From contig CAJIZG010000003.1 of the NCBI GenBank assembly GCA_905181865.1, positions 513,001 through 577,000 of the forward strand: DNA of 64,000 nt. The letters are read 5' to 3'. The translations under genes were made by a program, and so were the position numbers. Positions 34,956 through 60,916 of the stretch are shown here, piece after piece. Position 1 is the first letter of the stretch. The number at the start of each line of letters is the position of its first letter. The stretch is from Urechidicola croceus. Lineage in GTDB: Bacteria > Bacteroidota > Bacteroidia > Flavobacteriales > Flavobacteriaceae. The notes under the pieces were generated by a model. That model did no database searches. It saw only the letters and a program-made list of their open reading frames with translations, and was not told the origin of the DNA.

Positions 34956-34978
34956 CGTATGAATTAAAAAAAACCCTT
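34956..34978 (-). promoter_or_regulatory. Proposed ECF-sigma promoter P1 (FecR-SusC-SusD)
   Basis: On the minus strand the block AAGGG (34974-34978) is followed after exactly 12 T/A-rich nt by CATACG (34956-34961). The same pair with the same spacing occurs at P2 (39741-39763) and P3 (60894-60916). A weaker version of the downstream block shared by P2 and P3 (here CTACATTAGAAT) follows about 20 nt later. Confidence 0.75.
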
Positions 34979-35107
34979 AAAAAAATAAAAAAAATATATT
35001 TATAGGGGACTTCCAAAGAGGACTTCCGAAAATTAACTCATTATTAATCAGTTAATTATACGCATATAAAATTACAATAAAAAATATATAAAATACGAGA
35101 GAATAAA

Positions 35108-35960
35108 GGTTTATTTGATGAAGAGTTTACCAAAGAGCTTTTCTCATCAATAGGCAACCCATCTAGAATCAATGAGTAAAGTGATTGATTTTGATGTATT
35201 CAGAGAGTCCTTAAAAAGTAAATTACTCAACACCAATAAAAAAAATAATGCAGGAGCCAAGCCTTATAATGTTGTGATATTATTCAAGATATTAATACTC
35301 CATCGTTATTATGGTCTTGGAGATAGCCAGGTGGAATATCAAATATTAGATCGAACTAGTTTTAAAACATTTTTAGGATTAGAAACAGGAGATAAAGTTC
35401 CAGATGAAAAAACAGTATGGAGCTTTAAAGAACGCATAACAAAAACAGGGTTAGTAGAAGAGTTATTTGAGCATTTTGTAGTCTTTTTAGAAGAAAAAGA
35501 GTTGATTTTTAATGAAGGTCAAATGGTAGATACAAGTTTTACGGTAGCTCTACGTCAACGCAATACAAGAGAAGAAAACAAGAAAATTAAAAAAGGAGAA
35601 GGTGATAATTTATGGAACGACAAACCTAACAAAAAAAAATACAAAGACATTGATGCACGTTGGACAAAGAAAAATGGAGAAACTTTCTACGGTTATAAAA
35701 ATCAAGCAAAAGTAGATACCAAAAGCAAGTTGATTAACACCTACACCGTAAAAGAGGCATCAGTTCATGACTCACAAACTTTAGATGTCTTGCTTACCGC
35801 AAAGATAAAGACCAAGTCCTACACGCAGATAATACTTAAACAGAGGACGAACAATATAAGATTATTGAAAAATATGAAATAAAGAATAAAGTACACGAAA
35901 AAGGATATCGCAACAGACAATTGCTGCTATTTGGAATTCTAATTGTCCCTAGTGAAAATT
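35108..35960 (+). pseudogene. Decayed IS5-family transposase remnant
   Basis: The open part 35172-35882 encodes IS5-type DDE transposase sequence (KVIDFDVFRESL, YYGLGDSQVEYQILDR, MVDTSFTVALRQRN with the first catalytic Asp). The homology continues beyond it in other frames: upstream in GLFDEEFTKELFSSIGNPSR (35108-35175), and downstream as DKDQVLHADNT and TEDEQYKIIEKYEIKN, KVHEKGYRN (to ~35930). So at least three frameshifts interrupt it and the C-terminus with the last catalytic Glu is lost. No clear terminal inverted repeats were found. It lies between the anti-sigma gene and the LuxR and sigma genes and probably took part in rearranging this locus. Confidence 0.85.
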
Positions 35961-36151
35961 AAAGGCTGGGTTGATTTATATCAGAAGACAGGACAGCACA
36001 GAATAGTTGTATGGAATTTTGTTTTTGTTTGTGTTTTGGTACACAATATATTAAATTTTATTTTGGGTAATTTAAATGTGTAACTTATCCCTAATAATAA
36101 TATTTGATCAATTTTTATTCATATATTACAAAGTAATAATCTAGAAGCATA

Positions 36152-36940
36152 ATGGAAGTATATAATGGCCCTCATTTAATCATAAAATATGAACAAGAGA
36201 ATTCAAGGCTAATTAATACTTGGAAATCTAGCCCGACTAATGATGCAGCGTACAGAGAAGAGTTGATAGAACATCTACACATAATTCAGAAAATAAAACC
36301 TTCTCAAGTAATGTGGCTTCTAAAGAACCTTACTTTTAAAGTAGGTGATGTCACAAAAATATGGGTTGACGAAAACATTTCGAAGCCAATATTTAAAGCT
36401 GGATTTATAGCTAAAAACCAAACTGGTTTTGATCAAGTCGTATTTGTTGTAGGGCACGATGTATTATCTTACATTGAAGTAATAAGCATATTTAAAGAGA
36501 GTTATCTTAATGGCTTTAAACCAAAGTATTTTGTAACTGAAATAGAAGCCAGAAATTGGTTGAGTGAAGAATTCAACACTAAAGGTTATAAGGACAAAGA
36601 TCCTAAGTTAGCCATCACTTTTAAAGGAATAGATGACAATGGAAAAGTAGTTTTTGAGTTTCGAGAACAGGCGTCTAAATTTGATAGTACTATTAATTCA
36701 TTTAAAACTCTTGTTGAACAAAATCATTTTATGAGGAGTAATGTTGAAAAATATTCTTTCTTAACTCCAAGAGAAAAAGAAACGCTCAAATTCGTTGTCA
36801 AAGGATATACTAATAAGCAGATATCTGAGAAAATGTATGTTTCTCACCACACCATCCGAACTCATAGAAATCGAATTTGGAAGAAACTTGAAATTAAACA
36901 TTTCAGTGATTGCTTAAAATATGATTGCTTTTTTGATTAA
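36152..36940 (+). CDS. LuxR-type (HTH) transcriptional regulator
   Basis: A 262-residue cytoplasmic protein. The C-terminal LuxR/GerE helix-turn-helix is clear at ~205-260: SFLTPREKETLKFVVKGYTN then KQISEKMYVSHHTIRTHRN. The N-terminal ~190 residues hold an alpha/beta sensor-like domain (DQVVFVVGHDVLSYIEVI) resembling STAS/SpoIIAA-like folds of Bacteroidota regulators, but no receiver Asp pattern is evident. Target genes are unknown; it is single and flanked by IS debris, with a strong hairpin just after the stop. Confidence 0.85.
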   Translation: MEVYNGPHLIIKYEQENSRLINTWKSSPTNDAAYREELIEHLHIIQKIKPSQVMWLLKNLTFKVGDVTKIWVDENISKPIFKAGFIAKNQTGFDQVVFVVGHDVLSYIEVISIFKESYLNGFKPKYFVTEIEARNWLSEEFNTKGYKDKDPKLAITFKGIDDNGKVVFEFREQASKFDSTINSFKTLVEQNHFMRSNVEKYSFLTPREKETLKFVVKGYTNKQISEKMYVSHHTIRTHRNRIWKKLEIKHFSDCLKYDCFFD

Positions 36941-36949
36941 CCCCACCTT

Positions 36950-36973
36950 ACAATACGCTCTATAGCGTATTGT
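36950..36973 (+). terminator. Perfect 10-bp hairpin after LuxR gene
   Basis: ACAATACGCT-ctat-AGCGTATTGT forms a perfect stem 10 nt downstream of the LuxR stop codon. There is no long T-run, so it may be a weak terminator or bidirectional 3' end. The rest of 36974-37256 shows no gene or repeat that I can recognise. Confidence 0.6.
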
Positions 36974-37256
36974 AGCATCTATAGCAACACTCTATCTTGC
37001 AAAGATTATAATATAATTGAATGACGTCAGCAAATAGTGAACTTTTAAAGGGTTAAATCTAATAGATAGAATTTGAATATTTAGTATTGAAATCAACAAG
37101 TTGTTGCAACATTTAAGCAAAAAACAAGACAATACAGGAGACTAAAGGATACCAGAGATAAAAAAAATTAATATTGCTGCATGATCAACAAAATTAGTTT
37201 TTGAAGAAAAAAGATAAAAAAGAGTGCTTGTCTTTATAAGAAAAAAAAAAAATAAT

Positions 37257-37264
37257 TATATTTG
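37257..37264 (+). promoter_or_regulatory. Bacteroidota-type -7 box of the sigma gene
   Basis: TATATTTG matches the TAnnTTTG housekeeping promoter box and lies 43 nt before the ATG at 37308. It falls inside the longest reading frame, which argues for the internal start. A clear -33 TTG box at the right distance is not seen. Confidence 0.55.
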
Positions 37265-37307
37265 CGAAAATAAAAATTCAAAAATCTGCAATTATTTACT
37301 TCAATAT

Positions 37308-37892
37308 ATGAACGACAATCAATTGGTTTTAATGCTTAAAAATGATGATAGAAAAGTCTTTAATACTATTTTCAAACAACACTACAGATCATTATTAGCC
37401 TATGTTGTCACTTTTACAGGAAATAAAAATAAAGCCAAGGATATCGTGCAAGATAGTTTTATTGTTTTGTGGGATAAAAGAAAAAATTTGTCGGAGGATT
37501 CTTCTTTAAAAAGTTATTTATTTACCGTTGCTCATAATTTATATATCACGCAATACAGAAAAAAAGCAACTGAAATAAAGTTTTTTGATGAATTAAAATT
37601 CAACGCTCTAAATGACCGAATTTTTGAAGATGATACCTTTACAAAAGAAAGAGTTAAAAAGTTATTAGATCTAATAGATGAGTTACCACCTAAATGCAAA
37701 GAAGTTTTACTTCTTAATAAAAAAGAAGGTCTTAAATACGCAGAAATTTCTAAAAAGCTGAATATTTCTATAAAAACTGTCGAATCTCAAATGCGAATAG
37801 CATTCAAAAAAATAAGACTTGGTTTTAAAAAAGATGAATTGTATTTATTTATGGCATTCAAAGATTCCTTGCATAATTTGTTTCGAATTTAG
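37308..37892 (+). CDS. ECF-type RNA polymerase sigma factor (FecI-like)
   Basis: The frame is open from 37224 (222 codons), but I choose Met29 (ATG at 37308, MNDNQLVLMLKNDD), because this is where Bacteroidota FecI-type sigmas begin and a TATATTTG promoter box lies upstream inside the longer frame. The 194-residue product has sigma region 2 (FKQHYRSLLAYVVTFTGN, KAKDIVQDSFIVLWDKR) and region 4 (LPPKCKEVLLLNKKEGLKY, AEISKKLNISIKTVESQM). It should pair with the FecR at 33769-34917 and recognise the AAGGG-N12-CATACG promoters. Unlike the usual sigma-fecR-susC order on one strand, it is on the opposite strand and 2.4 kb away, with an IS remnant and a LuxR gene between. Confidence 0.93.
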   Translation: MNDNQLVLMLKNDDRKVFNTIFKQHYRSLLAYVVTFTGNKNKAKDIVQDSFIVLWDKRKNLSEDSSLKSYLFTVAHNLYITQYRKKATEIKFFDELKFNALNDRIFEDDTFTKERVKKLLDLIDELPPKCKEVLLLNKKEGLKYAEISKKLNISIKTVESQMRIAFKKIRLGFKKDELYLFMAFKDSLHNLFRI

Positions 37893-37915
37893 CACAACTC
37901 TAAAACCTTTAGGGC

Positions 37916-38060
37916 ATCTCCTTTGTCTTTAAGGGTATTGTAAATATTTAAAATAGATCTTTTTAATTTTCCTTTGTGAATTTCTTTCCCTTGGTATTTG
38001 ATTATTATACCAATTATCACTCAAAATAACCCACTGGCTGCCAAATGTTTTATACGACTT
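37916..38060. repeat. ~145-bp dispersed repeat, copy 1
   Basis: Nearly identical to 48549-48692, same orientation, 10.6 kb apart. On the minus strand part of it reads like protein (KYQGKEIHKGKLKRSILNIY, then NTLKDKGDALKVLELC and a stop), so it may be the conserved tail of an unidentified gene rather than pure non-coding DNA. It starts 24 nt after the sigma stop codon. Confidence 0.85.
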
Positions 38061-38268
38061 AAGTTTACAAACTATTACATTTAAGTATTAATCAGAAAGA
38101 ACAAAAGAGAGAATTAAGGTTATGTTATACGGTGAAGCATTGACTTCGACAACATTGATAATCCTCTCTCTTTTACTACTTAGATTTCGTTCAGTTCTGT
38201 GAGTATTGTAAACTCGTTTTCAAGTTGTTGAAACGCCAGTAGCTAGTTCTTTCCTAAACTATTTTCTC

Positions 38269-39074: not shown

Positions 39075-39664
39075 CTACTTGGCATAAATCGGGCGAATTT
39101 ATGAGTTACAATCGTTAGGGAAAGGATCCCAATAGGGATGCGATTTTTACTGATGATGTGCGTTGCCACTATGCCGCCTGCGTAAGTTATGCAGATGCTC
39201 AAGTAGGAAAGATTCTGGCAGAGTTGAAACGGACAGGAGCTGATAAAAATACGATTGTCATATTGCGGGGAGACCATGGCTGGCATTTGGGAGAGCATGT
39301 TATTTGGGGTAAACACATTCTATTTGAGGAGTCTTTACATTCACCATTAATAATTCGATATCCAAATATGAAAACTAAAAACGCTACAACAAATACCATT
39401 GTAGAGACACTTGATGTTTTTCCCATACTTTGTGATTTGACAGGAATTGATACTCCTAATTTTACCCAAGGAACCCCATTGGTGAACTTATTAGAAAACT
39501 CGGAAAAGAAAGGGCATTCAGCGGTTGCTTATACCAAAAATTATAAAAAATCGACCATACGAACTTCTACCCATAGAATGATATTTCATGAAAATGATTT
39601 CATAGAGTTATATCATCATACCAGTGAAGAAAAAGAAACCAATTGGCTGTCGTTCAAGATTTAG
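39074..39664 (+). pseudogene. Sulfatase C-terminal fragment with internal stop
   Basis: The C-terminal ~190 residues of a formylglycine-type (iduronate-2-sulfatase-like) sulfatase: HYAACVSYADAQVGKILAEL, GDHGWHLGEH, KHILFEESLHSPLIIRYP and the FIELYHHTSEEKETNWLS end. The N-terminal CxPSR site needed for formylglycine is missing. In frame upstream, WHKSGEFMSYNR is followed by TAG at 39116-39118, then GKDPNRDAIFTDD. So it is both truncated and interrupted and cannot be active. The open part starts only at 39158 (GTG). It is a relic of an earlier sulfated-glycan locus. Confidence 0.9.
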
Positions 39665-39740: not shown

Positions 39741-39799
39741 AAGGGTTTTTTTAAAATCATACGTTTATAATATTAGTTACAACACCTAGAGGTTAGATT
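39741..39799 (+). promoter_or_regulatory. Proposed ECF-sigma promoter P2 (DUF1549/DUF1501 operon)
   Basis: AAGGG (39741-39745), 12 nt of T then A, CATACG (39758-39763), then exactly 20 nt later ACCTAGAGGTTAGATT (39784-39799). All three parts recur with identical spacing at P3. A second AAGGGG lies just upstream (39729-39734). The block is ~140 nt before the start codon at 39938. Confidence 0.8.
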
Positions 39800-39937: not shown

Positions 39938-42900
39938 ATGATGATAAGAGCCTTGCATAATATTATTAAACGAGAAGCACTAGGAGTTATTTTAGTGTTT
40001 GTTGTCGGGATGTTTTTGGCAACTGGTTGTAAACCGAAATTACCTGAATATGTGGCTGTAGAATATGAGGCACTTCCAGAAACTATTCAGTTCAGCATAC
40101 ATGTAAAACCTATTTTATCTGACAAGTGTTATACATGCCATGGGCCCGATGAAAATGCACGAAAAAGTGATTTACGTTTTGATACTGCAGATGGCTTATA
40201 TAAAAAGTCCATTAATGGAAATCGGGCATTTGTAGGAGGTAACTTAAAAAAGAGTGAATCTATTCAACGAATTTTAAGTGAAGACCCTGCTGATATAATG
40301 CCTCCAGAAGATGCGCATCTTGCCCTCAGTACTAGAGAAAAGGCTATTCTTATTAAATGGGTAGAACAAGGAGCCAAATGGAAAAAACATTGGGCTTTTA
40401 TTGCACCTCAAAAATCGGAACTTCCAACTGTAAATGAATCATGGAAAACTAATAATGAAATTGATACTTTTATTTATGAAAAACTTGCTCAGAATGATTT
40501 AAAGCCTTCAGAAAAGGCAAACAAAGAACAATTATTAAGAAGATTGAGTATCGATTTAACCGGATTACCACCAACTCTATCTGAAATTAATGATTTTTTA
40601 AATGACTCTAGTGAAAAAGCATATGAAATTCTAGTCGATCGTTTAATAAATTCTGAGGCCTATGCAGAGCGAATGACGTTGGAATGGCTAGACCTAGCAA
40701 GATATAGCGATTCTCATGGATATCATGCCGATGGATTAAGGATTATGTGGCCATGGAGAGATTGGGTTATCGATGCATTTAAAAATAATAAACCGTATAA
40801 CGAATTTGTCATAGAACAAGTCGCTGGTGACTTAATTGAAAATGCGACTAAAGAACAAATTCTTGCTACAGGATTTAATAGAAATCACCCTATGACAGCT
40901 GAAGGTGGTGCCATTGATGAAGAATATAGAATTGATTATGTAACCAACAGAACGAACACCTTTGGTACCGCATTTTTAGGTCTTACTATGGAATGCGCCA
41001 AATGTCATGATCATAAATTTGATCCTATTTCTCAAGAAAATTACTTTGAATTATTTGCATTTTTCAATAATAACCGAGAATTGGGAGTGACCTCTGAAGA
41101 TGGAAATTTTGGTCCCTTACTGTTGTTGTCTAAAGACGCAGAAGATATTGAAATTGCAAAAATCACTCGGAAAATTGATTCTATAGAAAAACTGCAATTG
41201 GCTGAAAAAGAAGTTTTACTAGCAGTACCTAATTATTCAGAAAGTGATTTGTTTAAAAAGGCAGAACCCTATCTTCATCATGATTTTGAAAAGGTGACTG
41301 AAACTAAAAATTTCCATTATTTAGACGATACGAAAACTACCAAAATTGGAAAAAAAGTAGCACTCAAAGATGGCTTTATAGGGCAGGCCCCAAATTTTAA
41401 TAATCAGTTTGATGTAATTGAACTAACAGGTAAAGATAATTTTCAACTTTCTGATGCATTTTCAGTATCTGTTTGGGTATCTCCAACAAAACGTGCTAAT
41501 GAAGGAGCTACTTCCACTATTATTGGAAATTCATCCACCAAAGGTGAATTGTATAAAGGGTGGGATTTACATTTAGATAACACAGGAATACTATCTGCTC
41601 GCTTAATTAGTGTTTTACCCAACAACTATTTACATATTAAAAGTGAAGAGGCTATTCCTTTAAATGAATGGACACATATTTTAATGACCTACGATGGCTC
41701 TACACATGCGGCTGGTTTAAAATATTATATCAATGGAAAAGAAACTCGATTTAATATAGAATATGATCGTCTTTATAAAAACATCAATCCTAAATATCCT
41801 CATAAGAAGGTGATGATTGGTAAATCTCCTCGTGGATTTACTGGCGATAACGGGATTTATATTGGACTTATTGATCAACTTTCTATGTTTGACTTGGAAG
41901 TCTTACCGAAAGAAGTGGCAAGTATTTACACCCAATCAAAAGAAGGCAAAAAACCTGTAGTTTGGACACCAATCGATGCCGATTTTCTCCGCTTAACTTC
42001 GGAATTAAGACAACTACAATTAGATCGAGTAAAAATCATAGAGCCTATTCAAGAAATGATGGTTATGGAAGAAATGGAGTCCCAACGTAAAACGTTTATC
42101 TTGGAGCGTGGTGAATACGACAAACCAACAACTGAAGTACATAGAGCAGCACCTGGTGATATCTTAGAATTTTCAGAAGACTATCCAAAAAACAGATTAG
42201 GACTGAGTCAATGGTTGTTTAACCGCGATAATCCACTTACCGCCAGAGTAGCGGTTAATAGATATTGGCAAATGATATTTGGAAGAGGGCTCGTTTCAAC
42301 GACTAATGACTTTGGTAATCAAGGGTCAATCCCTACACATCCTGAATTATTAGATTGGTTGGCTGTGGAATTTAGAGATTCTGGATGGGATACACGCGCC
42401 TTAATCCGTAAAATGGTGATGAGTAATACCTATACACAATCTTCTAAAACAAGTTTAGAACTCGCTGAATTTGATCCCGATAATGAATTATTAGCAAGAG
42501 CTCCAAGTTATCGTTTACAGGCTGAATTTATTAGAAACAATGCTTTAGCCTCTAGTGGCCTTATCAATAGAAAAGTAGGAGGTGAAAGTGTAAAACCTTA
42601 TCAACCTGAAGGACTTTGGATTGCCGGAAACTTTTCTCAGGCGCTAGCAAAGTATGTGCAGGATCATGATAAAAAACAATACCGCCGTACAATGTACACT
42701 TTCATTAAACGAACAGCACCTCCTCCGTATATGACAATTTTTGATATGCCGACTAGAGATATTTGTATGGTTTCTAGAGAGTCCACAAATACGCCTTTAC
42801 AAGCCTTATCGCTTTTAAATGACCCTCAGTTTGTTCAAGCAGCGAAAGCGATGGCTGTTCGCATGAAAAAAGAAGGTGGTGAGCAAATTAATGAACAACT

Positions 42901-43138
42901 GGAAATTGGTTTTCAAATGGCCGTTAGCCGAAAACCAAATAAAAAAGAATTACAGATTTTAAACGATTTATATAAACAAGAATTTAGCAAGTTTGAAGCA
43001 TCTAAAGAAAATGCGCTCGCATATTTAGCTGTTGGGGATTATAAAGTTCCTAATGAGTATCAACCATCGGAAATGGCAACGTTAACCTTGGTGGCAAATA
43101 CCTTGTTAAATATGGATGAAATGTATACTAAAAGATAA
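39938..43138 (+). CDS. Planctomycete-type cytochrome protein: PSCyt1-DUF1549-LamG-DUF1553
   Basis: A 1066-residue lipoprotein (lipobox Cys31, LATGC). Order: PSCyt1 haem c domain with CYTCHGPDENARKSDLRFDT (Cys64, Cys67, His68); PSCyt2/DUF1549 (~165-370) with DLTGLPPT, RYSDSHGYHADG and a second CxxCH (ECAKCHDHKFDP); a LamG/concanavalin domain (~500-665, PTKRANEGATSTIIGNS); and PSD1/DUF1553 (~755-1010, NPLTARVAVNRYWQMIFGRG, ESTNTPLQALSLLNDP). Such proteins are abundant in Planctomycetota and Verrucomicrobiota and are thought to take part in periplasmic oxidative carbohydrate turnover, but the reaction is not established. First gene of a three-gene operon under P2. Confidence 0.92.
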   Translation: MMIRALHNIIKREALGVILVFVVGMFLATGCKPKLPEYVAVEYEALPETIQFSIHVKPILSDKCYTCHGPDENARKSDLRFDTADGLYKKSINGNRAFVGGNLKKSESIQRILSEDPADIMPPEDAHLALSTREKAILIKWVEQGAKWKKHWAFIAPQKSELPTVNESWKTNNEIDTFIYEKLAQNDLKPSEKANKEQLLRRLSIDLTGLPPTLSEINDFLNDSSEKAYEILVDRLINSEAYAERMTLEWLDLARYSDSHGYHADGLRIMWPWRDWVIDAFKNNKPYNEFVIEQVAGDLIENATKEQILATGFNRNHPMTAEGGAIDEEYRIDYVTNRTNTFGTAFLGLTMECAKCHDHKFDPISQENYFELFAFFNNNRELGVTSEDGNFGPLLLLSKDAEDIEIAKITRKIDSIEKLQLAEKEVLLAVPNYSESDLFKKAEPYLHHDFEKVTETKNFHYLDDTKTTKIGKKVALKDGFIGQAPNFNNQFDVIELTGKDNFQLSDAFSVSVWVSPTKRANEGATSTIIGNSSTKGELYKGWDLHLDNTGILSARLISVLPNNYLHIKSEEAIPLNEWTHILMTYDGSTHAAGLKYYINGKETRFNIEYDRLYKNINPKYPHKKVMIGKSPRGFTGDNGIYIGLIDQLSMFDLEVLPKEVASIYTQSKEGKKPVVWTPIDADFLRLTSELRQLQLDRVKIIEPIQEMMVMEEMESQRKTFILERGEYDKPTTEVHRAAPGDILEFSEDYPKNRLGLSQWLFNRDNPLTARVAVNRYWQMIFGRGLVSTTNDFGNQGSIPTHPELLDWLAVEFRDSGWDTRALIRKMVMSNTYTQSSKTSLELAEFDPDNELLARAPSYRLQAEFIRNNALASSGLINRKVGGESVKPYQPEGLWIAGNFSQALAKYVQDHDKKQYRRTMYTFIKRTAPPPYMTIFDMPTRDICMVSRESTNTPLQALSLLNDPQFVQAAKAMAVRMKKEGGEQINEQLEIGFQMAVSRKPNKKELQILNDLYKQEFSKFEASKENALAYLAVGDYKVPNEYQPSEMATLTLVANTLLNMDEMYTKR

Positions 43139-43149
43139 AAAGAAAAATC

Positions 43150-44598
43150 ATGTGTGATCATCATAATAAAAGTTTAACCCGAAGAGACTTCCTTACGAAG
43201 ACATCTTTAGGTCTAGGAGCCGTTGCAATGAGTTCTTTAATGAATCCATTGTCAATGGGAGCATCTACGCTACTAGGCCCTAACGGGGATCCAATTTTAG
43301 GTAAACCACATTTTACGCCAAAAGTAAAAAGAGTGATTTATTTATTACAGAGTGGCGCACCATCACAATTGGATCTATTCGATTACAAACCATTGCTTAA
43401 CAAATTGAACGGGCAAGAATTACCAGAAAGCGTTCGTAAAGGACAAAGATTGACAGGAATGACCGCTGGCCAAACATCCTTTCCTTTGGCAGGCTCTATC
43501 TTTAATTTTAAGCAGCACGGACAAAGTGGTGCATGGATGAGCGATTTAATGCCGCATACAGCAGGAATTGCAGATGAATTGTGCTTTATAAAATCAATGC
43601 ATACAGACGCCATCAATCATGACCCTGCCGTAACTTTTTTACAGACAGGTTCTCAATTTTCTGGTAGGCCATCTATTGGTTCATGGGTTAGTTATGGATT
43701 AGGTTCCGACAATAAAAATTTACCCAATTTTGTAGTATTGGTTACCAAAGACAAAAAAGGGCAACCATTGTACTCTAGATTATGGGGGAACGGATTTTTA
43801 CCTTCAGAACATCAAGGTACGCAGTTTAGAGCAGGAAAAGATCCTGTTTTGTTTTTACAAAACCCTCCAGGAGTTACATCGGAAAGTCGTAGAAACCAAC
43901 TTGATCATTTAGAACAATTACAACAATTACAATATGATGCATTGGAAGACCCTGAAATTAGAGCGCGTATGTCTCAATATGAAATGGCTTTTAGAATGCA
44001 GACCTCTGTCCCTGAAATCATGAATACGGATGGAGAACCTGAACATATTTATGACATGTATGGTTCTGATAGTAGGATCCCTGGCACTTTTGCTGCAAAT
44101 TGTTTATTAGCAAGACGATTGGTAGAAAAAGACGTGAAATTTATTCAATTATACCATCAAGGATGGGATCATCATGGTGGATTGCCAGCAGGGATAAAGA
44201 AACAATGTAAAGAAACAGATCAACCAACTGCTGCATTGATAAAAGATTTAAAACAACGTGGATTACTCGAAGACACCTTAGTAATTTGGGGTGGTGAATT
44301 TGGAAGAACCAACTATTCTCAAGGTGCCTTAACTGCTACTAATTATGGTAGAGATCACCATCCAAAATGTTTCACTTTATTTATGGCTGGAGCTGGAGTA
44401 AAGAAAGGAATGACTTATGGCGCAACCGACGATTTCGGATATAACATTGTTGAAAATCCAGTTCATGTTCATGATTTTCAAGCGACACTTATGCATTTAA
44501 TGGGAGTTGATCATGAACGACTTATTTACAAGCATCAGGGTCGTAGATTCAGACTCACCGACGTAAGCGGACATGTTCTTAAAGATATTTTATCATAA
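43150..44598 (+). CDS. DUF1501 protein (Tat-exported, alkaline-phosphatase/sulfatase fold)
   Basis: A 482-residue protein with a twin-arginine leader (LTRRDFLTKTSLGLGAVAMS, Arg11-Arg12) and the DUF1501 hallmarks: VIYLLQSGAPSQLDLFDYKP, HTDAINHDPAVTFLQTG, LYHQGWDHHGG and VIWGGEFGRTNYSQG followed by GRDHHPKCFTLFMAGAGVKK. The metal-binding Asp/His pattern of the alkaline phosphatase superfamily is visible in DHHGG and GRDHHP. DUF1501 genes almost always follow DUF1549/DUF1553 genes, as here (11 bp gap); the pair presumably works together in the periplasm. Reaction unknown. Confidence 0.92.
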   Translation: MCDHHNKSLTRRDFLTKTSLGLGAVAMSSLMNPLSMGASTLLGPNGDPILGKPHFTPKVKRVIYLLQSGAPSQLDLFDYKPLLNKLNGQELPESVRKGQRLTGMTAGQTSFPLAGSIFNFKQHGQSGAWMSDLMPHTAGIADELCFIKSMHTDAINHDPAVTFLQTGSQFSGRPSIGSWVSYGLGSDNKNLPNFVVLVTKDKKGQPLYSRLWGNGFLPSEHQGTQFRAGKDPVLFLQNPPGVTSESRRNQLDHLEQLQQLQYDALEDPEIRARMSQYEMAFRMQTSVPEIMNTDGEPEHIYDMYGSDSRIPGTFAANCLLARRLVEKDVKFIQLYHQGWDHHGGLPAGIKKQCKETDQPTAALIKDLKQRGLLEDTLVIWGGEFGRTNYSQGALTATNYGRDHHPKCFTLFMAGAGVKKGMTYGATDDFGYNIVENPVHVHDFQATLMHLMGVDHERLIYKHQGRRFRLTDVSGHVLKDILS

Positions 44599-44611
44599 AT
44601 AATCAAAGTAA

Positions 44612-45985
44612 ATGGGAGATAATATAATTGTTTTTTTAGGGAGATTTCATCCTTTAGTTGTACACTTACCTATTGGTTTTCTACTTATGGCTGGTCTACT
44701 TCAACTTTTTGCAGCAAAAAAGAAAACCATAAATTTTAATCCTGCCATTGCATTTACATTATTCTGGGGCACGTTGGCCTCTATCGGTGCTGTTGCAATT
44801 GGTTGGTTACTTTCACTTCAAGGTGGCTATGATGCCGAAACCCTCTTTTGGCATAAATGGTTGGGGATTTTAGTAACCGTTTTATCCTTTTTGGGATGGG
44901 TTTTAAAAACAGAAAGAATAAAAGTTCACAAATCAGTTTTTACTTGGATCCTTGGGTCCATTATAGTACTCGTTTCTGTTTCTGGACATTTAGGAGGAAG
45001 CCTGACACATGGTGATACTTATTTAACGCTATACGCACCTAATTTTATTAAAGTTTTAGCCGGAGTCGACACTGACGGGAATAAATTTATCCTAAAAAAG
45101 ATACATCAAGATTCAATAAAAGTATTTCCCCATATCATTCAACCAATCCTAGAATCAAAATGTACGAGTTGTCATAATCCAAATAAAAAAAAAGGCGGAT
45201 TATTATTAACGAGTTACAAAGAATTTATAAAAGGAGGTGATAATGGGTCAATTACAGATACAAAATCCCCTCTTAAAAGTGAGTTTTTAAATAGGGTTAC
45301 TTTACCTAAAGCACATAAAAAGTTTATGCCACCTAGAGGTGCTGCTCTTAATTTTGGTGAAATTCAAATTATTGAATGGTGGATGAAAAATGGCGCTGAC
45401 AGTATTTCTGAATTTTCGAATATAAATGACTTGGATAAGAACCTAGTCAACACCCTAATTCGTGATTATAATTTAGATTACAATCCAAAACCATATTATG
45501 AAAAAGTCAAAGTCGATGCATTGTCTCCTGAAACAATAAATGAATTAGAAAAAAATAATTATTCGATAAACTTTATGGGCGAAAATAGCAACATGATTTC
45601 TGTTACTTTTAAAGGAAAAACGATTTCTGATGAACAAATAACTAAATTGTTACTTGCCAAAGAACAAATAACTTGGCTCAAGTTAAGCGATTGTAATTTA
45701 AAAGATTCTCATTTAAAAATAATATCAGAATTTATTCATCTCACGAGATTAAACATCCATTCGAACGCTATTACTAATGATGGACTTCAAGAATTAAAAG
45801 TTTTACAAAATATTAATTCGATAAACTTATACAATAACAAGATTTCGAATTCTGGATTAACAGACATTGCAATATTACAATCTTTAAGAAAGTTATATGT
45901 TTGGAAAACTGATATTACTTCTTTAGAAATAAGTGACATTTTACAAAAAACTAAGAACCTAGAAATTATTGGGCAGTTAAATTAA
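44612..45985 (+). CDS. DUF2231 membrane protein with PSCyt1 haem domain and leucine-rich repeats
   Basis: A 457-residue protein with three parts: four membrane segments of DUF2231 type (1-150, RFHPLVVHLPIGFLL), a periplasmic haem c domain with CTSCHNP (Cys184, Cys187, His188) and FMPPRGAALN, then LRRs (~345-455, HLTRLNIHSNAITNDGLQEL). It should anchor electron transfer from the two upstream proteins in the inner membrane, with the LRRs as a docking surface. 13 bp after the DUF1501 gene: one operon. This trio is planctomycete/verrucomicrobial in style and probably acquired by Bacteroidota, although base use here is AT-rich and native-looking. Confidence 0.9.
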   Translation: MGDNIIVFLGRFHPLVVHLPIGFLLMAGLLQLFAAKKKTINFNPAIAFTLFWGTLASIGAVAIGWLLSLQGGYDAETLFWHKWLGILVTVLSFLGWVLKTERIKVHKSVFTWILGSIIVLVSVSGHLGGSLTHGDTYLTLYAPNFIKVLAGVDTDGNKFILKKIHQDSIKVFPHIIQPILESKCTSCHNPNKKKGGLLLTSYKEFIKGGDNGSITDTKSPLKSEFLNRVTLPKAHKKFMPPRGAALNFGEIQIIEWWMKNGADSISEFSNINDLDKNLVNTLIRDYNLDYNPKPYYEKVKVDALSPETINELEKNNYSINFMGENSNMISVTFKGKTISDEQITKLLLAKEQITWLKLSDCNLKDSHLKIISEFIHLTRLNIHSNAITNDGLQELKVLQNINSINLYNNKISNSGLTDIAILQSLRKLYVWKTDITSLEISDILQKTKNLEIIGQLN

Positions 45986-55105: not shown

Positions 55106-56551
55106 TTACCAAATGATTGTATAATTGATTTCCTTTTTCCCAACTGGTATTTTAACCAATAATTCTTTCTTCCCTTCGGATGTTCGTATCTCTGGTTTTT
55201 GTTGTTTCCCATCTGAGAACTCCACAAAATAATTTTTATCGTCAATCAGATAAGAATTATTCGATAACTTCTCTATAGTACTTCCCTCTCCTATTTTATG
55301 CCAAATAGCTTCTTTTGCTTCAACCGAAATAACGCTTGTTAAACCTCTGGAATCATCCAACGGAATAAAACTCGAACGAATCAATGATTCATTTAGTTCC
55401 ATCAAAAAAATTGGATTCCCATCACTGTCCAATTCATATCCTAATTGCTTATAATTGTCATTATTAGTTGCAGAATCTGGCCAAGCGGAATTTTCATTCT
55501 CCAAAATAGCAATAGCTGGATTTCCAGCTAATGAAACTTCGACTCCAATTGGAGCCCCCGTTTGGGACAAACCTTTTTTTTCTCCTCTTCCATACCACAT
55601 CATAGTTGCATCCAAAAATTTACCTCCCCAAACTTGTAATAGAGAGCCATTCGCTAAATCATATGAATAGTTCACTTCGCTTGTTGTTCCAACAGAAATA
55701 CAATGTGTTCTTTTTGCATCCTTATGCTTTAAGAATCCTCGTTGCATTACTGTTTCGTCTGAAACTTCTATTTCAATTAGTGTGGTCTTCTTCTTTTTTT
55801 TATTTTCGTCAGCACTTGAAGCCGGTATACCAAGTCTATATTTTATATTTCTAAAAGCAACCGCTCCATGATCTCCTTGAATCATGAGAGCACCTTTTGC
55901 CTGCTCATCTGAAAAAGCAGCGGATGTTGTAGGATCCGAGACTTCTTTATCCCTATGTAACAATGCCCCGTTCAGCCATACTTCTTTAAATAGGGCATTC
56001 TTCACTTTTGCTCCTGAACTATCAAATGTTGGTGCCTGAAATACAATTTTAAAATGTTGCCATAAACCTGGTGATTTAGCCGCATTAACACGTGGCGCCC
56101 CACCTCTTTGATATACACCTCCAATATCTGAATATTGCGGTTCTTCTGTACCCCAACTGTCCAACAATTGCACTTCATAACGTCCTTGAAAATACAAACC
56201 TGAATTGGAACCGACTGGCATCATTACATCCAATTCTAATTCTATATCGCCATGCTCAAAATTTGAAAAAAGATGCCCTCTGTTTTTCTTATCAGTTCTA
56301 TTTAATAAAATCCCAGTTCCTTTTTTGGAATTAAATTTTCCTTTTTTTGATGGATGCACATTTACATTTCCAACTATTTTCCAGTTTTTACTAACGGGTT
56401 TAAAGGCATCCAAATTGCTCAAGTCAATTTTTGTAAATGTTACTGTTGTTTGTCCATCTTCTTCTTGCGCTGTTGTTTCAATCTTAGAATTCTTAGCATT
56501 AATTCCCGTAGTGAGAAATAGTAAGATTAAACAACTCAGTGAATACTTCAT
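55106..56551 (-). CDS. DUF1080 (3-keto-disaccharide hydrolase-like) protein with extra C-terminal domain
   Basis: A 481-residue secreted protein (signal peptide near GINAK). Residues ~36-245 are a DUF1080 jelly roll (GDIELELDVMMPVGSNSGLY, FQGRYEVQLLDSW, GALMIQGDHGAVAFRNIKYR). A Lys-rich linker leads to a second domain (~262-481) with RTHCISVGTTSEVNYSYDLA, GSLLQVWGGKFLDATMMWYG; this resembles the N-terminal unnamed domain of the 49807-52719 protein. Its place upstream of two propeller proteins supports a joint oxidative glycoside pathway. No start problem: the ATG follows an A/T-rich leader. Confidence 0.85.
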   Translation of the reverse strand: MKYSLSCLILLFLTTGINAKNSKIETTAQEEDGQTTVTFTKIDLSNLDAFKPVSKNWKIVGNVNVHPSKKGKFNSKKGTGILLNRTDKKNRGHLFSNFEHGDIELELDVMMPVGSNSGLYFQGRYEVQLLDSWGTEEPQYSDIGGVYQRGGAPRVNAAKSPGLWQHFKIVFQAPTFDSSGAKVKNALFKEVWLNGALLHRDKEVSDPTTSAAFSDEQAKGALMIQGDHGAVAFRNIKYRLGIPASSADENKKKKKTTLIEIEVSDETVMQRGFLKHKDAKRTHCISVGTTSEVNYSYDLANGSLLQVWGGKFLDATMMWYGRGEKKGLSQTGAPIGVEVSLAGNPAIAILENENSAWPDSATNNDNYKQLGYELDSDGNPIFLMELNESLIRSSFIPLDDSRGLTSVISVEAKEAIWHKIGEGSTIEKLSNNSYLIDDKNYFVEFSDGKQQKPEIRTSEGKKELLVKIPVGKKEINYTIIW

Positions 56552-56579: not shown

Positions 56580-56602
56580 AGCCTTCATAGCCTTCATAGC
56601 CT
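56580..56602. repeat. Short tandem repeat
   Basis: The nonamer CCTTCATAG occurs in tandem two to three times in the 242-bp gap upstream of the DUF1080 gene. Nothing else notable is seen in that gap. Confidence 0.6.
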
Positions 56603-56793: not shown

Positions 56794-59700
56794 TTAATTA
56801 GATACAAGTATTACTGTAGAAAAATCATTAACCTTTAATACATATAAACCAACTAATGCGTTATTTGGAAATTTTAGTAAAGTAATCCTTGATAATGGAT
56901 TGTAGTTTGCCTCGTTAATTTCAATTTTTCTGCCTAACATATCAAATAAACTAAAACTATCTGACTCTTTTGTGTTCGTTATATTTATTTCTTTATTCAC
57001 TAAAGGACTTGGATAGAAAGTATGTTCTTCTTGCTCAAGGTCTTTAACTTTACCATAGAAATAAGGTATAGCAAAGTTGTATGTATCAATTCCTATTTCC
57101 TCCCCAATTAAACGTCCTGGTATATCATCAGCAGGAGGATGTATTCCTCCCCAAATACGGGACAAACTAGTTTGATCTGATGCATCTCTATAGGTTGCCC
57201 ATTGCAGTGTTACGTCTACCGATGGTCCTTTTTCAAAAACTAAAAATTCATCCTTTTTGGCTACAAATTCTCCCATTCCACCCGGGAAAAACTCATCTCC
57301 TGTAATTAGTGTCATCACTTCTGCTGCAGCTCTCGAAAACGTGGAGTGGCCAGAAATATAGCCCGCAAAAGGGGGTGTAACAAATGAAGGTCTTTGATAT
57401 GGCCACCAATTTTTTGCCATAATCCACCCTACTCCAGCCACATCAGTTTCTGAATTACTTATAAAATCATGTCCGTTCCAGGCATATAATTTTATTTCTC
57501 CTATATTTTCCTTTAAGTCTCCTTCTAAAGGATCTCCTTCTTCTATAATTTCTATAAAATCATCAACTAAAGGAATTCCGGCGACATTATAGTTTGCCAG
57601 ATTTTCATCAGTACTTTGCCCCAATTCACTCATATATCTAATTGCAGAAATAGGTCTTATATAATCTACCCAACCTTTAATACCCCATGCTGTTATAGCC
57701 GAATCATGCATTGCTCCTGCCAAAATAAAGTAAGATTTTATATCCCATTCCAACGGATTCATTTTTTCTCCTTGACCATTAAATTTCTTTTCAAATAAGG
57801 GGTGATCACTAACATAATTTAAAATGGTAAACCAATGCCCTGGCGGTGTTTCTGATTCTGGACCATCTGCCCAAAATTCTGCAAGAACTCTGGCATAATC
57901 AGCTCTCGGAACCATTTGAGTTTCATAAGGTTTTCCTGTTACTGGATTCGAACTATGCCCTATACTTATATCTCCACCTTCTGTATAATTATAAAATTCA
58001 TCATAATTTCCAAAAGAACTAGGAAATAAATTAATATCAATATTACCTATTGATTTCGGTGAAATATCCCACGAAACACCATCAGTAGCATCTAAATGAG
58101 AACTCCATAAAGAAACCAAAGAAAAATTCCATAAATACTGCTTGCTTGATTCCGTTTGAGAAGTAAGATCCAATTGCGGTGGAGTACTCGGAGCATGATA
58201 TGTTGTATACGTGTCACCCTCTCTTTGGTAAACAGATTTATCATCGTCACTAAGTGCAAATGGTAATACATTTCCCCATTCTGAACCTAAAAACTCAGGT
58301 GTGGAACCAATAATTTGATTTCCACTTTGATCAATAAATGTATCAAAAGTTAGGGGTTGCCATCTATTTGGATCCATAAATCCAGTGTTTTTTTCTGAAA
58401 CATTAAGTTCTAATGGTGGGTTTGTTGGTGCGTAATAGTTGTTCTCATAATCATTAATCTCATTTGAATTATCCGTTAAACCAAAATTTATAAGTATTTG
58501 ACCTATGTAATTACCTAAGTCTGCTGCATTTCCTGATTCGTAAACACTAGATGTATAACTTGCATCATATCCTAGTTGACTCATGATCAAATCAAAGCGT
58601 TCTAATGACGATTCTGCACGAGGTGAGTTTTGAAAGCGATGTGTTAATATACGATAGGCTGCATAACTGATTGCTTTATTTTGAGACTCCTCGACACTTT
58701 CAACAGGAGTAACATCTTTGAGTTCACTACTAAAATTATGAACCGTATTCCCAATTAAATAAGGTTTGGCATCTGTATCATAAATAGCCCAAGCGTCATA
58801 CATTGCGACAGAAGTATGAAATAGATTTCTAGCATGAACCGTTGGCCGTGCATAATCTCCTCTTATTGCTTCCAGCAATGCTTCATTCCAAATTCTTGCC
58901 ACTGAAATATTATCAGGTACTGAAGTAACACTTAAATTTACTTCTAGTCTATGAGAATCTCCTTGACAAAGGGTGTTTTTTTCTTTTACAGAGACCTTGC
59001 CCGTTTCACTTAACCCCCATTTAACCGTAATACTATTAGTACCTTCACCGCTTATAATTTCTCCATTTTCTACCTTCCAAAATTCAATAAATTCTGAATC
59101 CAAATCAAGGCTATACGTTTCAGTTTTACCAAAACCTGAAAAATTAGCTCCATGTATATCATTTAAAGTAATTACACATGAACCGTCATTAACAGTGGCT
59201 AATGGGTTAAAGGAGCACGAATTCGGGTCTGTACAGCCATAAATCTTCTCAGGATTATAAATTTCATATTCCTCCACGCCTTCCGTAACAATTACTGTTA
59301 CATTTACCTCCTCTAAATCGTTAATTGTCTGTATATACCCTGAAGGCCATTTAATTTGAAGTGTATTGACCTTAACAGATTCATTTAATCCAAAATGAAT
59401 AGGTAATAAACTTTGAGCTATAAACCCAACTCCTGAATAATGTCTGCTATAGACCCCTCCATCGGTTGTAATTGACACTTCTGCACCAAGGCCATCTCTG
59501 TTCGAATCGGTGCCAATTAAAGAAACCTTTAACCAATTCAAATTATCGTTTTGCTCTAAATCATTCGTTTTATTTTCATAAACAAAAAAAGATTGATCTA
59601 AATTAGTTAAAAAAATATCTAAATCTCCATCATTGTCAAAATCAAATGAAACCACTTCTCTACTATCTGTAATTTCAACTAAATTACTTTTAAATGTGTC

Positions 59701-60828
59701 GTCTTTAAAACCTCCTAATCCTTCCTTCAGTAAGTTTTTATAATAAAAGTTTTGACTCACTACCAGTCCTTCTGAATCTCCATTTGCAACGAAAAGATCT
59801 TCATCACCATCTAAATCAAAATCTGCAAATTCACAACCCCAAGCCCATTTTGTATCAAAAATACCCAAGTTAAAAGCATTTGAAAACAAATTATTTCCAT
59901 CATTTTCAAAAAATTTAGTTTCATTTATCCCTGTAATAAAAATATCAAAATCTTGATCATTATCAAAATCTCCAAAAGTCATCCCCATGTCATCCATTGT
60001 ACTGTCTAAACCATAATCAGCTGCTTTTTCTAAAAAGTCATTTCCAGTTCCACTTCCTACATGATTTTCATACAAATTATTTGGATCCGAAAAATCAATT
60101 GATACGTACAAATCAAGCAATCCGTCTTTATTAAAATCAAATGGTATCATAGAGAAACTGTGATCCGTTGGCCCGTCATCATTTATTCCACTCCCAATAA
60201 CAACTTTTCCAAAAGTTCCATTCCCATTATTTCTAAAAAGTGAACCTCCACCTCCATCACAACCTCCCCAGTCATTTATATAGATGTCTAAAAAACCGTC
60301 CTTATCGTAATCAAACCAGGTCGCCCCCATATTTCTACAAGTTTCATTAACCTCAATACCTGATGAATTTGTGGCGTTTTCAAAAGATCCATTCCCTGTA
60401 TTACGAAAAAGTTGTACTCCTGTTAAATAAGTAAGAAATAAATCTGGAAAACCATCATTGTCGTAATCACCCCAGGACGCACCAAACCTCTCACCTTCCA
60501 TCCCTAAAAATTCAATATTTTGAGGCGAATATAAACCTAGCAATCCAGATGACTCGGTCACATCCGTAAAAAACCCATTATCATTTCTAAATAATCTGCT
60601 AAAAGATTTTTCAAGATTGTTAATGTCACCACTTTTTGCTACAATAAAAACATCTAAATCAAAATCGCCATCATAATCTGCGACAGCAATAGAACTGTTT
60701 TCCTCTAAAATCTCAAGTCCAATCTCATTTTCAATTCTTCGGAATTGTTGTGCACTTGAATCTAAATAAATAAATGAACTACAAATTAAGGCTAATAAAT
60801 AATGACTATATATAGTATTCGTTTTCAT
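56794..60828 (-). CDS. FG-GAP/ASPIC - vanadium haloperoxidase-like fusion with T9SS tail
   Basis: A 1344-residue secreted protein (signal peptide to SSAQ). Residues ~28-420 are FG-GAP/VCBS repeats with Ca-binding DYDGDFDLDV-type loops; ~430-515 an ASPIC/UnbV domain (LGAEVSITTDGGVYSRHYSG, IKWPSGYIQTI); ~530-555 a Cys motif (GCTDPNSCSFNP, DGSC). Residues ~640-1250 form a vanadium-dependent haloperoxidase/PAP2 domain with all three phosphate/vanadate motifs: KNWWPYQRP (KX6RP), YISGHSTF (SGH) and SRIWGGIHPPAD (SRX5HX3D). The end (~1265-1344, SFSLFDMLGRKIEI, NNALVGLYVLKVND) is a type A T9SS sorting tail, so it is displayed or released at the surface. Promoter P3 lies 65 nt upstream. The active form could be a haloperoxidase or a phosphatase. 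Confidence 0.92.
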   Translation of the reverse strand: MKTNTIYSHYLLALICSSFIYLDSSAQQFRRIENEIGLEILEENSSIAVADYDGDFDLDVFIVAKSGDINNLEKSFSRLFRNDNGFFTDVTESSGLLGLYSPQNIEFLGMEGERFGASWGDYDNDGFPDLFLTYLTGVQLFRNTGNGSFENATNSSGIEVNETCRNMGATWFDYDKDGFLDIYINDWGGCDGGGGSLFRNNGNGTFGKVVIGSGINDDGPTDHSFSMIPFDFNKDGLLDLYVSIDFSDPNNLYENHVGSGTGNDFLEKAADYGLDSTMDDMGMTFGDFDNDQDFDIFITGINETKFFENDGNNLFSNAFNLGIFDTKWAWGCEFADFDLDGDEDLFVANGDSEGLVVSQNFYYKNLLKEGLGGFKDDTFKSNLVEITDSREVVSFDFDNDGDLDIFLTNLDQSFFVYENKTNDLEQNDNLNWLKVSLIGTDSNRDGLGAEVSITTDGGVYSRHYSGVGFIAQSLLPIHFGLNESVKVNTLQIKWPSGYIQTINDLEEVNVTVIVTEGVEEYEIYNPEKIYGCTDPNSCSFNPLATVNDGSCVITLNDIHGANFSGFGKTETYSLDLDSEFIEFWKVENGEIISGEGTNSITVKWGLSETGKVSVKEKNTLCQGDSHRLEVNLSVTSVPDNISVARIWNEALLEAIRGDYARPTVHARNLFHTSVAMYDAWAIYDTDAKPYLIGNTVHNFSSELKDVTPVESVEESQNKAISYAAYRILTHRFQNSPRAESSLERFDLIMSQLGYDASYTSSVYESGNAADLGNYIGQILINFGLTDNSNEINDYENNYYAPTNPPLELNVSEKNTGFMDPNRWQPLTFDTFIDQSGNQIIGSTPEFLGSEWGNVLPFALSDDDKSVYQREGDTYTTYHAPSTPPQLDLTSQTESSKQYLWNFSLVSLWSSHLDATDGVSWDISPKSIGNIDINLFPSSFGNYDEFYNYTEGGDISIGHSSNPVTGKPYETQMVPRADYARVLAEFWADGPESETPPGHWFTILNYVSDHPLFEKKFNGQGEKMNPLEWDIKSYFILAGAMHDSAITAWGIKGWVDYIRPISAIRYMSELGQSTDENLANYNVAGIPLVDDFIEIIEEGDPLEGDLKENIGEIKLYAWNGHDFISNSETDVAGVGWIMAKNWWPYQRPSFVTPPFAGYISGHSTFSRAAAEVMTLITGDEFFPGGMGEFVAKKDEFLVFEKGPSVDVTLQWATYRDASDQTSLSRIWGGIHPPADDIPGRLIGEEIGIDTYNFAIPYFYGKVKDLEQEEHTFYPSPLVNKEINITNTKESDSFSLFDMLGRKIEINEANYNPLSRITLLKFPNNALVGLYVLKVNDFSTVILVSN

Positions 60829-60857
60829 ATTAAAGATTTCCTAACTAATTTTTTATG

Positions 60858-60916
60858 AATCTAATCTCTAGGTATTATGCATATATCTTGTAACGTATGA
60901 TTTTAAAAAAACCCTT
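60858..60916 (-). promoter_or_regulatory. Proposed ECF-sigma promoter P3 (haloperoxidase fusion gene)
   Basis: Minus strand: AAGGG (60912-60916), 12 nt, CATACG (60894-60899), 20 nt, ACCTAGAGATTAGATT (60858-60873). It agrees with P2 in both blocks and both spacers, and in the T7-AAAAT run between them. The start codon of the fusion gene follows 29 nt later. Confidence 0.8.

What the first reader, a model, noticed from the sequence alone, without database searches (positions are those of the whole stretch)
34956..60916. Three-member ECF-sigma promoter family: AAGGG-N12-CATACG
The pair AAGGG and CATACG, separated by exactly 12 nt, occurs at 34956-34978 (FecR-SusC-SusD), 39741-39763 (DUF1549-DUF1501-cytochrome/LRR operon) and 60894-60916 (FG-GAP/haloperoxidase gene), each in the right orientation and within about 40-175 nt of a start codon. 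P2 and P3 add a second shared block, ACCTAGAG(G/A)TTAGATT, exactly 20 nt after CATACG; P1 has a degenerate form. A FecI-type sigma gene (37308-37892) and its FecR lie in the same window. I infer a sigma regulon that joins glycan uptake to planctomycete-like cytochromes and a haloperoxidase-like surface protein. I am not aware of this promoter being described.
Basis: partly seen in the sequence, partly recalled or inferred. Interest (0 to 1): 0.88.

Follow-up and report, generated by a model that had tools for sequence, protein, structure and literature searches.

The report
FecI promoter copied across glycan island
A short DNA switch that in related bacteria sits once, beside the genes of a sugar-sensing regulator, occurs about eleven times in one 150-kb stretch of this bacterium's chromosome, which would let one sensor turn on a whole set of sugar-digesting genes.

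Summary
AAGGG-N12-CATACG is exact at the three window sites. The 3.42-Mb genome has 9 exact copies against 0 for the reversed pattern. With near matches there are 11 sites, all within C3:425,868-579,324. Most of the spacer is conserved too.

The core is -35 AAGGGT, -10 CGT. In relatives it lies between divergent fecI and fecR genes: 27 of 31 FecI loci are divergent and 18 of those 27 carry AAGGGT on the fecR strand, against 1.9 in shuffles. Of 60 further loci, 56 are divergent and 33 carry A[AG]GGGT, against 2.7. Two sister lineages have this promoter once each, between fecI and fecR; this genome has it ten times. A decayed fecR | site | fecI relic in the island shows the ancestral layout.

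Best reading: a FecI/FecR/SusC sigma regulon expanded by copying the fecI-fecR intergenic promoter ahead of unrelated glycan-catabolism genes. Transcription is untested. FecIR signalling is known; I found no description of this promoter or its multiplication in the papers searched.

The parts
34956..34978 (-). P1: promoter of fecR-susC-susD (AAGGGTTTTTTTTAATTCATACG, then T completing CGT); genome C3:547956-547978
   Evidence: 38 nt before the fecR start; same layout between fecI and fecR in relatives
39741..39763 (+). P2: promoter before the PSCyt1/DUF1549/DUF1553 - DUF1501 - DUF2231/PSCyt1 genes; the only copy on the + strand
39784..39799 (+). Second block ACCTAGAGGTTAGATT of P2, 20 nt after CATACG
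60894..60916 (-). P3: promoter before the FG-GAP/ASPIC/DUF6851/VCPO-like gene
60858..60873 (-). Second block ACCTAGAGATTAGATT of P3, 20 nt after CATACG
37308..37892 (+). fecI: ECF sigma factor, 194 aa, proposed to recognise the family
   Evidence: Pfam Sigma70_r2 and Sigma70_r4_2; homologs at E<=1e-25 in 93 of 348 family genomes searched, own genome included
33769..34917 (-). fecR: membrane anti-sigma / sigma regulator, 382 aa
   Evidence: Pfam FecR and FecR_C; one of 4 FecR matches in the genome
30030..33704 (-). susC-like TonB-dependent receptor, 1224 aa, with an STN-like domain at residues 94-142
   Evidence: Pfam CarbopepD_reg_2, Plug; STN at 26.0 bits, under its cut-off of 28.4
28151..29998 (-). 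susD-like lipoprotein
   Evidence: Pfam SusD_RagB, SusD-like_3
35172..35882 (+). Transposase ORF (DUF772 / part of DDE_Tnp_1) now lying between fecR and fecI
   Evidence: Pfam; other homologous pairs have a directly divergent spacer of roughly 100-340 bp
36152..36940 (+). LuxR/GerE-type regulator ORF, also between fecR and fecI
   Evidence: Pfam GerE
39938..45985 (+). Genes downstream of P2: PSCyt1-PSCyt2(DUF1549)-Laminin_G_3-PSD1(DUF1553); DUF1501; DUF2231-PSCyt1
   Evidence: Pfam
56794..60828 (-). Gene downstream of P3: FG-GAP_3 repeats, UnbV_ASPIC, DUF6851, PKD_6, weak VCPO_2nd (under cut-off)
   Evidence: Pfam

Best explanation
The motif is the promoter of a FecI-type ECF sigma factor (-35 AAGGGT, 16 nt from AAGGG to the -10 CGT). 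In the ancestor, as in relatives, it sat once, between divergent fecI and fecR, and drove fecR-susC-susD. In this genome pieces of that intergenic region were copied ahead of about ten other genes within a 153-kb glycan-catabolism island, so that one surface signal (substrate on the SusC/SusD pair, passed by SusC's STN-like domain to FecR and by FecR to FecI) should switch on transport, a rhamnose transporter, glycosidases, an oxidoreductase, and cytochrome- and haloperoxidase-like genes together. Shown here by sequence: the motif family, its excess over controls, its place between fecI and fecR in relatives, the relics, ragged copying of the promoter without its gene. Inferred: recognition by this FecI, the signalling steps, co-induction, which of the copies are active.
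For: 9 exact copies against 0 for the reversed pattern; 11 sites in 153 kb of a 3.42-Mb genome. Same layout between divergent fecI and fecR: first set AAGGGT on the fecR strand in 18 of 27 (fecI strand 2, shuffle mean 1.9), hexamer plus CGT at N13-17 in 15 of 27 (fecI strand 0, shuffle mean 0.08) (the two extra hexamers were added after seeing the sequences); second set A[AG]GGGT in 33 of 56 (fecI strand 0, shuffle mean 2.7), with CGT 14 of 56 (shuffle mean 0.06). The nearest FecI homologs in the tree, L048 and L105 (support 99/85), have AAGGGTTTTTT-N8-11-CGTT exactly once per genome, at the fecI-fecR spacer; this genome has it 10 times, control 0. Relics: fecR pieces | site | fecI-like start at C3:579.0-579.6 kb, and an 18-residue fecI start beside the site at C3:470,678. 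Copies share only the promoter stretch with ragged ends, common core -7 to +24. CGT is the usual ECF -10 box (PMC8103513, passages).
Against: No transcript data. Three sites (446757, 477578, 494069) lie 320-762 bp before the next ORF of 100 aa or more, one drives a truncated SusC-like ORF, and the copy at 579302 has a relic first, so some copies may be dead fossils. Near-identical recent copies would look conserved without selection. 23 of 56 loci of the second set lack the A[AG]GGGT hexamer. The proposed covariation of sigma region 4 residues with the -35 was not upheld for residue 156 in the second set. The STN match is under its cut-off. A second FecI in the genome (C2, 38% identical) has its own AAGGGT-type fecR promoter, so the regulon may be shared.
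Confidence: 0.75

Rival explanations
1. The sites are passive fossils: several fecI-fecR-susCD loci were duplicated in the island and decayed, leaving promoter scraps, of which only the fecR promoter still works.
For: fecR and fecI relics at C3:579 kb and a fecI-start relic at C3:470.8 kb; truncated SusC-like ORF after the site at 444077; six of the ten non-fecR sites... see the Against line for those followed closely by an intact gene; further partial matches to the fecI leader at C3:429.1, 483.5 and 552.6 kb without or with a site.
Against: The -35, spacer and -10 are intact in all 11 copies (one with a one-base-shorter spacer), while flanks have diverged; the 16-nt block is 14-15/16 identical between diverged copies whose neighbouring 20 nt are 6-12/20 alike. 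Five intact genes start 38-174 nt after a site with no ORF between (425869, 470678, 475173, 552741, 573894), besides fecR.
Confidence: 0.2
2. The repeat is a small mobile element (MITE-like) that happens to carry a promoter-like stretch.
For: Copies of 70-218 nt at 76-95% identity are spread over the island without their genes.
Against: Ends are ragged: left ends of pairwise matches range from -4 to -127 and right ends from +24 to +155, with no fixed boundary; 10 of 11 copies face the same way as most genes and the eleventh faces its own + strand gene; no copy outside the island except one weak hit. Terminal inverted repeats and target duplications were not searched for.
Confidence: 0.05
3. 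The promoters are read by another ECF sigma factor of the genome, or by several.
For: 13 FecI-like matches at E<=0.001 in the genome; the C2 FecI has a fecR promoter with AAGGGT too.
Against: The C2 promoter differs after the hexamer (AAGGGTATTTGAATTTGGCTCTGTATT, no CGT at the spacing); the copied sequence comes from the spacer of this fecI-fecR pair, as fecI leader matches show.
Confidence: 0.15

Closest known systems
FecI/FecR/FecA cell-surface signalling of E. coli
   Same: FecI-type ECF sigma, FecR, TonB-dependent receptor with N-terminal signalling domain.
   Different: E. coli FecI is described as controlling a single promoter, before fecA (PMC9249621, passages); here about eleven promoter copies, fecI and fecR are divergent, and the promoter precedes fecR. 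The -35 differs in sequence from the E. coli fecA promoter (recalled, not compared in a call).
ECF sigma / anti-sigma controlled PULs of Bacteroides
   Same: Sigma, FecR-type regulator, SusC/SusD and glycosidases in one locus.
   Different: Bacteroides PULs typically carry their own pair (PMC12596196, passages); promoters are mostly undefined: PMC3878776 (passages) calls their prediction a challenging task. SigW-1 acting on a distant sulfatase-rich PUL subset (same passages) is the nearest case of a wider reach.
SM6 sigma-ECF motif of Flavobacterium psychrophilum
   Different: Linked to secretion (T9SS) genes, not glycan use; its logo was not available to me, so the -35 could not be compared.
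Carrageenan regulon of Zobellia galactanivorans
   Same: One substrate, many loci including distal susCD and loner genes (PMC5698469, passages).
   Different: The regulator named there is AraC-type (CgrA); no shared sigma promoter is described in the passages I saw.

Membership tests
ECF sigma-dependent promoter | CGT-type -10 box | tested here: met
   All 11 island sites read ACGT at this place; hallmark taken from PMC8103513 (passages)
ECF sigma-dependent promoter | Group-specific -35 at fixed spacing, shared with homologous sigma loci | tested here: met
   18 of 27 AAGGGT, 15 of 27 hexamer plus CGT at N13-17; second set 33 of 56 and 14 of 56
ECF sigma-dependent promoter | Transcription start 5-10 nt after the -10 and loss in a sigma mutant | not testable with these tools
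   needs RNA data
FecI/FecR/TonB-receptor surface signalling | ECF sigma with regions 2 and 4 | tested here: met
FecI/FecR/TonB-receptor surface signalling | FecR-type sigma regulator next to it | tested here: met
   FecR and FecR_C; now 2.4 kb from fecI, with a transposase ORF and a LuxR-type ORF between
FecI/FecR/TonB-receptor surface signalling | Receptor with N-terminal STN signalling domain | tested here: inconclusive
   STN 26.0 bits against a cut-off of 28.4
Polysaccharide utilization locus | susC/susD pair with carbohydrate-active enzymes | tested here: met
   SusC, SusD; GH20, GH32, GH78, GH92, GH95-like, GH106, sulfatases
MITE-like mobile element | Fixed ends | tested here: not met
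   ragged ends of pairwise matches
MITE-like mobile element | Terminal inverted repeats and target duplications | not tested
   no call made for it

The most novel reading that the evidence does not exclude
A sigma regulon that grew by copy-and-paste: pieces of one divergent fecI-fecR spacer were recombined ahead of unrelated genes, rewiring a 153-kb catabolic island to one surface receptor, and the satellites share a second early-transcribed 16-nt element, absent from the regulator's own promoter, that adds a separate layer of control (operator or RNA target) to all effectors but not to the sensor.
Probability: 0.4. Interest if true: 0.78.

Novelty: new variant of a known kind. Interest (0 to 1): 0.62.

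Why it matters
Sigma-controlled PULs are common in Bacteroidota but their promoters have been hard to predict (PMC3878776, passages). A -35/-10 layout that recurs between divergent fecI and fecR across a family gives a rule to find such promoters from sequence. The island shows a way in which a one-promoter surface-signalling system can become a multi-operon regulon, and it ties cytochrome-like DUF1549/DUF1501 genes and a haloperoxidase-like protein, whose roles are unclear, to glycan use, which can be tested by one RNA-seq experiment.

Tried and rejected
Loose motif: with 2 mismatches the three-part pattern is at chance level in the window, so only near-exact copies were counted.

Housekeeping promoter on the fecI side: TAnnTTTG on the fecI strand is not enriched in the 27 spacers (2 of 27, shuffle mean 4.4). 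It occurs once in the window's fecI leader (TATATTTG, about 37257-37264), which alone proves nothing.

Sigma residue to -35 covariation: in 27 loci with a hexamer plus the window, K156 and S/A/G160 went with A[AG]GGGT (22 of 22) and R156 with E/T160 with ACGGGA (5 of 5). The 60 further loci gave no new ACGGGA case, and of two R156 cases one (L147) had AAGGGT and one (L157) no hexamer. Four of the five ACGGGA loci are one clade and the fifth is unresolved. I treat it as suggestive only. K156 plus S160 did go with the hexamer in 15 of 16 of the second set against 18 of 40 for the rest, but identity is confounded with this.

RNA structure in the shared leader: three leaders fold no better than shuffles (z 1.13, 1.94, 0.22).

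Promoter multiplication in other relatives: AAGGGTTT-N10-14-ACGTW gives 0-4 hits in each of 44 other genomes, at the level of the reversed control, against 12 (control 4) in the own genome. The pattern ACGTW misses promoters with other bases before CGT, hence the narrower test. Spread of the exact motif in the family: apart from the own genome 2 of 396 genomes have one hit each with 2 mismatches, and the reversed control has 2. In the genus 2 of 13 others have one exact hit, both inside long ORFs; the reversed control has 4 hits in those 13. FecI homolog of a congener (L101, 35% identical) was not examined for its promoter.

A search of genome contigs with FecI found one relative only (L032, 43% identical, fecI and fecR codirectional there).

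Literature: nine searches of openly licensed papers gave no description of this promoter; none of the 15 papers listed (of 137 holding at least 3 of 5 terms) has the string AAGGGT. The ECF classification papers with predicted group motifs (ECF Hub; recalled) were not read, so a predicted motif for this group may exist.
Full report
Observation. The three sites are exact at the given places. The whole genome (3,420,398 bases, 6 contigs, window = C3:513001-577000) holds 9 exact AAGGG-N12-CATACG, 0 for the reversed control. Most of the spacer is conserved: AAGGGTTTTTTTAAANTCATACG with up to 3 mismatches gives 11 hits, 10 of them at C3:425,869-573,916, one weak on C5, control 0. A twelfth pattern search, AAGGGT-N12-16-ACGT in the fetched 195 kb, finds the same 10, an N11 copy at C3:579302-579324, and one unrelated match at 507859. 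So there are 11 sites in 153 kb. Ten lie on the - strand, one (P2) on the + strand, each facing the next gene.

What the sites drive (first ORF after each site): 425869 RhaT, L-rhamnose transporter (+50); 444077 a 222-aa SusC-like N-terminal fragment, domain matches under cut-off (+141); 446757 transglutaminase-like (+320); 470678 GH20 (+159); 475173 a 594-aa protein without Pfam match (+61); 477578 Gfo/Idh/MocA oxidoreductase (+762, with smaller ORFs before it); 494069 GH92 (+520, a 67-aa ORF before it); 547956 fecR-susC-susD (+38, P1); 552741 PSCyt1/DUF1549/DUF1553, DUF1501, DUF2231-PSCyt1 (+174, P2); 573894 FG-GAP/ASPIC/DUF6851/VCPO-like (+65, P3); 579302 a fecR relic, then a ThuA-GSDH-PKD-cytochrome c protein (about +311). 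Operon ends were not determined. The island also codes for GH78-type, GH106, GH95-like, GH32, GH92 and GH20 enzymes, sulfatases, SASA esterases, 3-keto-disaccharide hydrolases, sugar transporters and a ROK kinase (not every ORF of the island was scanned).

Link to FecI. Homologs of the window FecI at E<=1e-25 occur in 93 of 348 genomes of the family searched. Of 31 FecI loci looked at (29 best loci of other genomes, L032 and the C2 paralog L021), fecI and fecR are divergent in 27, codirectional in 2, and FecR was not found near 2. The 27 spacers carry AAGGGT on the fecR strand in 18, on the fecI strand in 2, shuffle mean 1.9, maximum 7. Allowing AGGGGT and ACGGGA, chosen after looking, gives 26 of 27 (shuffle mean 3.1). 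Hexamer plus CGT 13-17 nt later: 15 of 27, opposite strand 0, shuffle mean 0.08. A second set of 60 further loci from the list was then fetched: 56 divergent, 4 without FecR found; A[AG]GGGT on the fecR strand in 33 of 56, opposite strand 0, shuffle mean 2.7; with CGT 14 of 56 against 0.06. Frequency falls with distance from the window FecI: 5 of 6 at 45% identity or more, 15 of 24 at 40-45%, 13 of 26 below. Many of the remainder show another GGGT or GGGA run, so the -35 seems to be a GGG core with variable neighbours; this last remark is by eye.

Copy number. In a tree of 96 FecI sequences the window FecI joins L048 and L105 (support 99/85). Their genomes, G373 and G212, hold AAGGGTTTTTT-N8-11-CGTT once each, about 100 nt from the fecI match and so in the fecI-fecR spacer; the reversed control also has one hit in each. 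This genome holds it 10 times, control 0. Of the other 28 genomes of that call, 3 have one hit each and the control one hit in one.

Origin of the copies. At C3:579.0-579.6 kb pieces of fecR (67-70% identical over 45 and 46 residues, E 9e-26) lie on one side of the N11 site and a fecI-like start on the other, in divergent order (protein match 32% over 69 residues, E 0.001; DNA match of fecI leader and gene 78% over 143 nt, E 7e-24). The site at 470678 has an 18-residue fecI start (78%) on its far side, and the DNA of the fecI leader matches there over 129 nt (78%, E 2e-23); weaker leader matches lie at 425.9, 429.1, 483.5 and 552.6 kb. In the window the living pair is itself split: fecR at 34917 and fecI at 37308 are separated by a transposase ORF and a LuxR-type ORF. 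Pairwise matches around the sites cover a common core of about -7 to +24, with ends from -4 to -127 and from +24 to +155, and do not run on into the genes, apart from overlapping windows, a tandem pair near 444-447 kb, the fecR relic, and a 75-nt match away from the sites. This fits copying of promoter pieces by recombination better than an element with fixed ends.

Second block. ACCTAGAGRTTAGATT matches at 14/16 or better in 8 of 11 sites, 17-21 nt after CATACG (20 in six). It is broken at 475173 (9/16) and absent at the living and the relic fecR promoters. Between the diverged copies 573894 and 552741 it is 15/16 alike while 20 nt before and after are 8/20 and 6/20 alike; other diverged pairs are similar. 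Genome-wide with up to 2 mismatches it has 14 hits: these 8 and 6 others, all six with 2 mismatches; the reversed control has 5. Leaders do not fold better than shuffles. It would lie in the first 30 or so transcribed bases and may be an operator or an RNA target; sRNAs that bind near start codons of PUL mRNAs are known in Bacteroides (FopS, PMC11697453, passages). This is inference.

Mechanism proposed. Substrate at SusC/SusD; SusC's STN-like domain (26.0 bits, cut-off 28.4) meets FecR; FecR activates or frees FecI (in E. coli with cleavage by RseP, PMC8144685, title and start of abstract in the listing); FecI-RNA polymerase starts at AAGGGT-N15-CGT; fecR-susC-susD and about ten other units respond together. 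Steps from substrate to FecI are from knowledge of the FecIR family, not tested.

Known and new. CGT as ECF -10 box is established (PMC8103513, passages) and seen in a flavobacterium (PMC9723704, passages). FecI of E. coli serves one promoter (PMC9249621, passages). PULs typically hold their own sigma/anti-sigma pair; SigW-1 of B. thetaiotaomicron acting on a distant PUL subset was reported as unexpected (PMC12596196, passages). In PUL24 of B. thetaiotaomicron a 5' end without housekeeping promoter was ascribed tentatively to the PUL's sigma (PMC11501099, passages). Two ECF-controlled N-glycan PULs there are held to be independently regulated (PMC11180146, passages). Multi-locus glycan regulons exist under other regulators (PMC5698469, passages). 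I found no paper with this promoter or with such multiplication; limits of that search are in Tried and rejected. I file it as a new variant of a known kind.

Limits. Relatives were drawn samples. The uniform-scatter figure (4e-13) ignores that the copies arose by local duplication and should not be read as evidence of function. Which copies are active is open, most of all for the four without a close intact gene (444077, 446757, 477578, 494069).

Noticed in passing
window 34917-37308: The living fecR and fecI are pushed apart by a transposase ORF (DUF772/DDE_Tnp_1) and a LuxR-type ORF; whether fecI still has its old promoter is open.
   Followed up: partly
L014:7972-9138 and 9182-10372: A GH95-type enzyme is split over two neighbouring ORFs (N-terminal and C-terminal parts), either a pseudogene or a sequencing error.
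   Followed up: no
window 39158-39664: C-terminal fragment of a sulfatase directly before P2; its 3' end runs into the stretch that matches the fecI leader.
   Followed up: partly
window 14339-15922 and L014:16664-18247: Two 527-aa GH32-type ORFs with only the first part of the GH32 N-domain recognised, in both halves of the island; look like paralogs.
   Followed up: no
window 23507-26299, 55106-56551, 26320-27591, 11359-12708: 3-keto-disaccharide hydrolase domains and Gfo/Idh/MocA oxidoreductases in the island suggest an oxidative (3-keto) route of glycoside cleavage beside the hydrolases.
   Followed up: no
window 39938-43138: Pfam also gives Toxin_R_bind_N (24.3 bits, cut-off 23.8) over the Laminin_G_3 lectin-like stretch; read as a shared concanavalin-type fold, not as a toxin.
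   Followed up: no
L013:9482-10141 and 12018-12677: Tandem Fib_succ_major genes, part of a local duplication around the sites at 444077 and 446757 (604 nt at 89%).
   Followed up: partly
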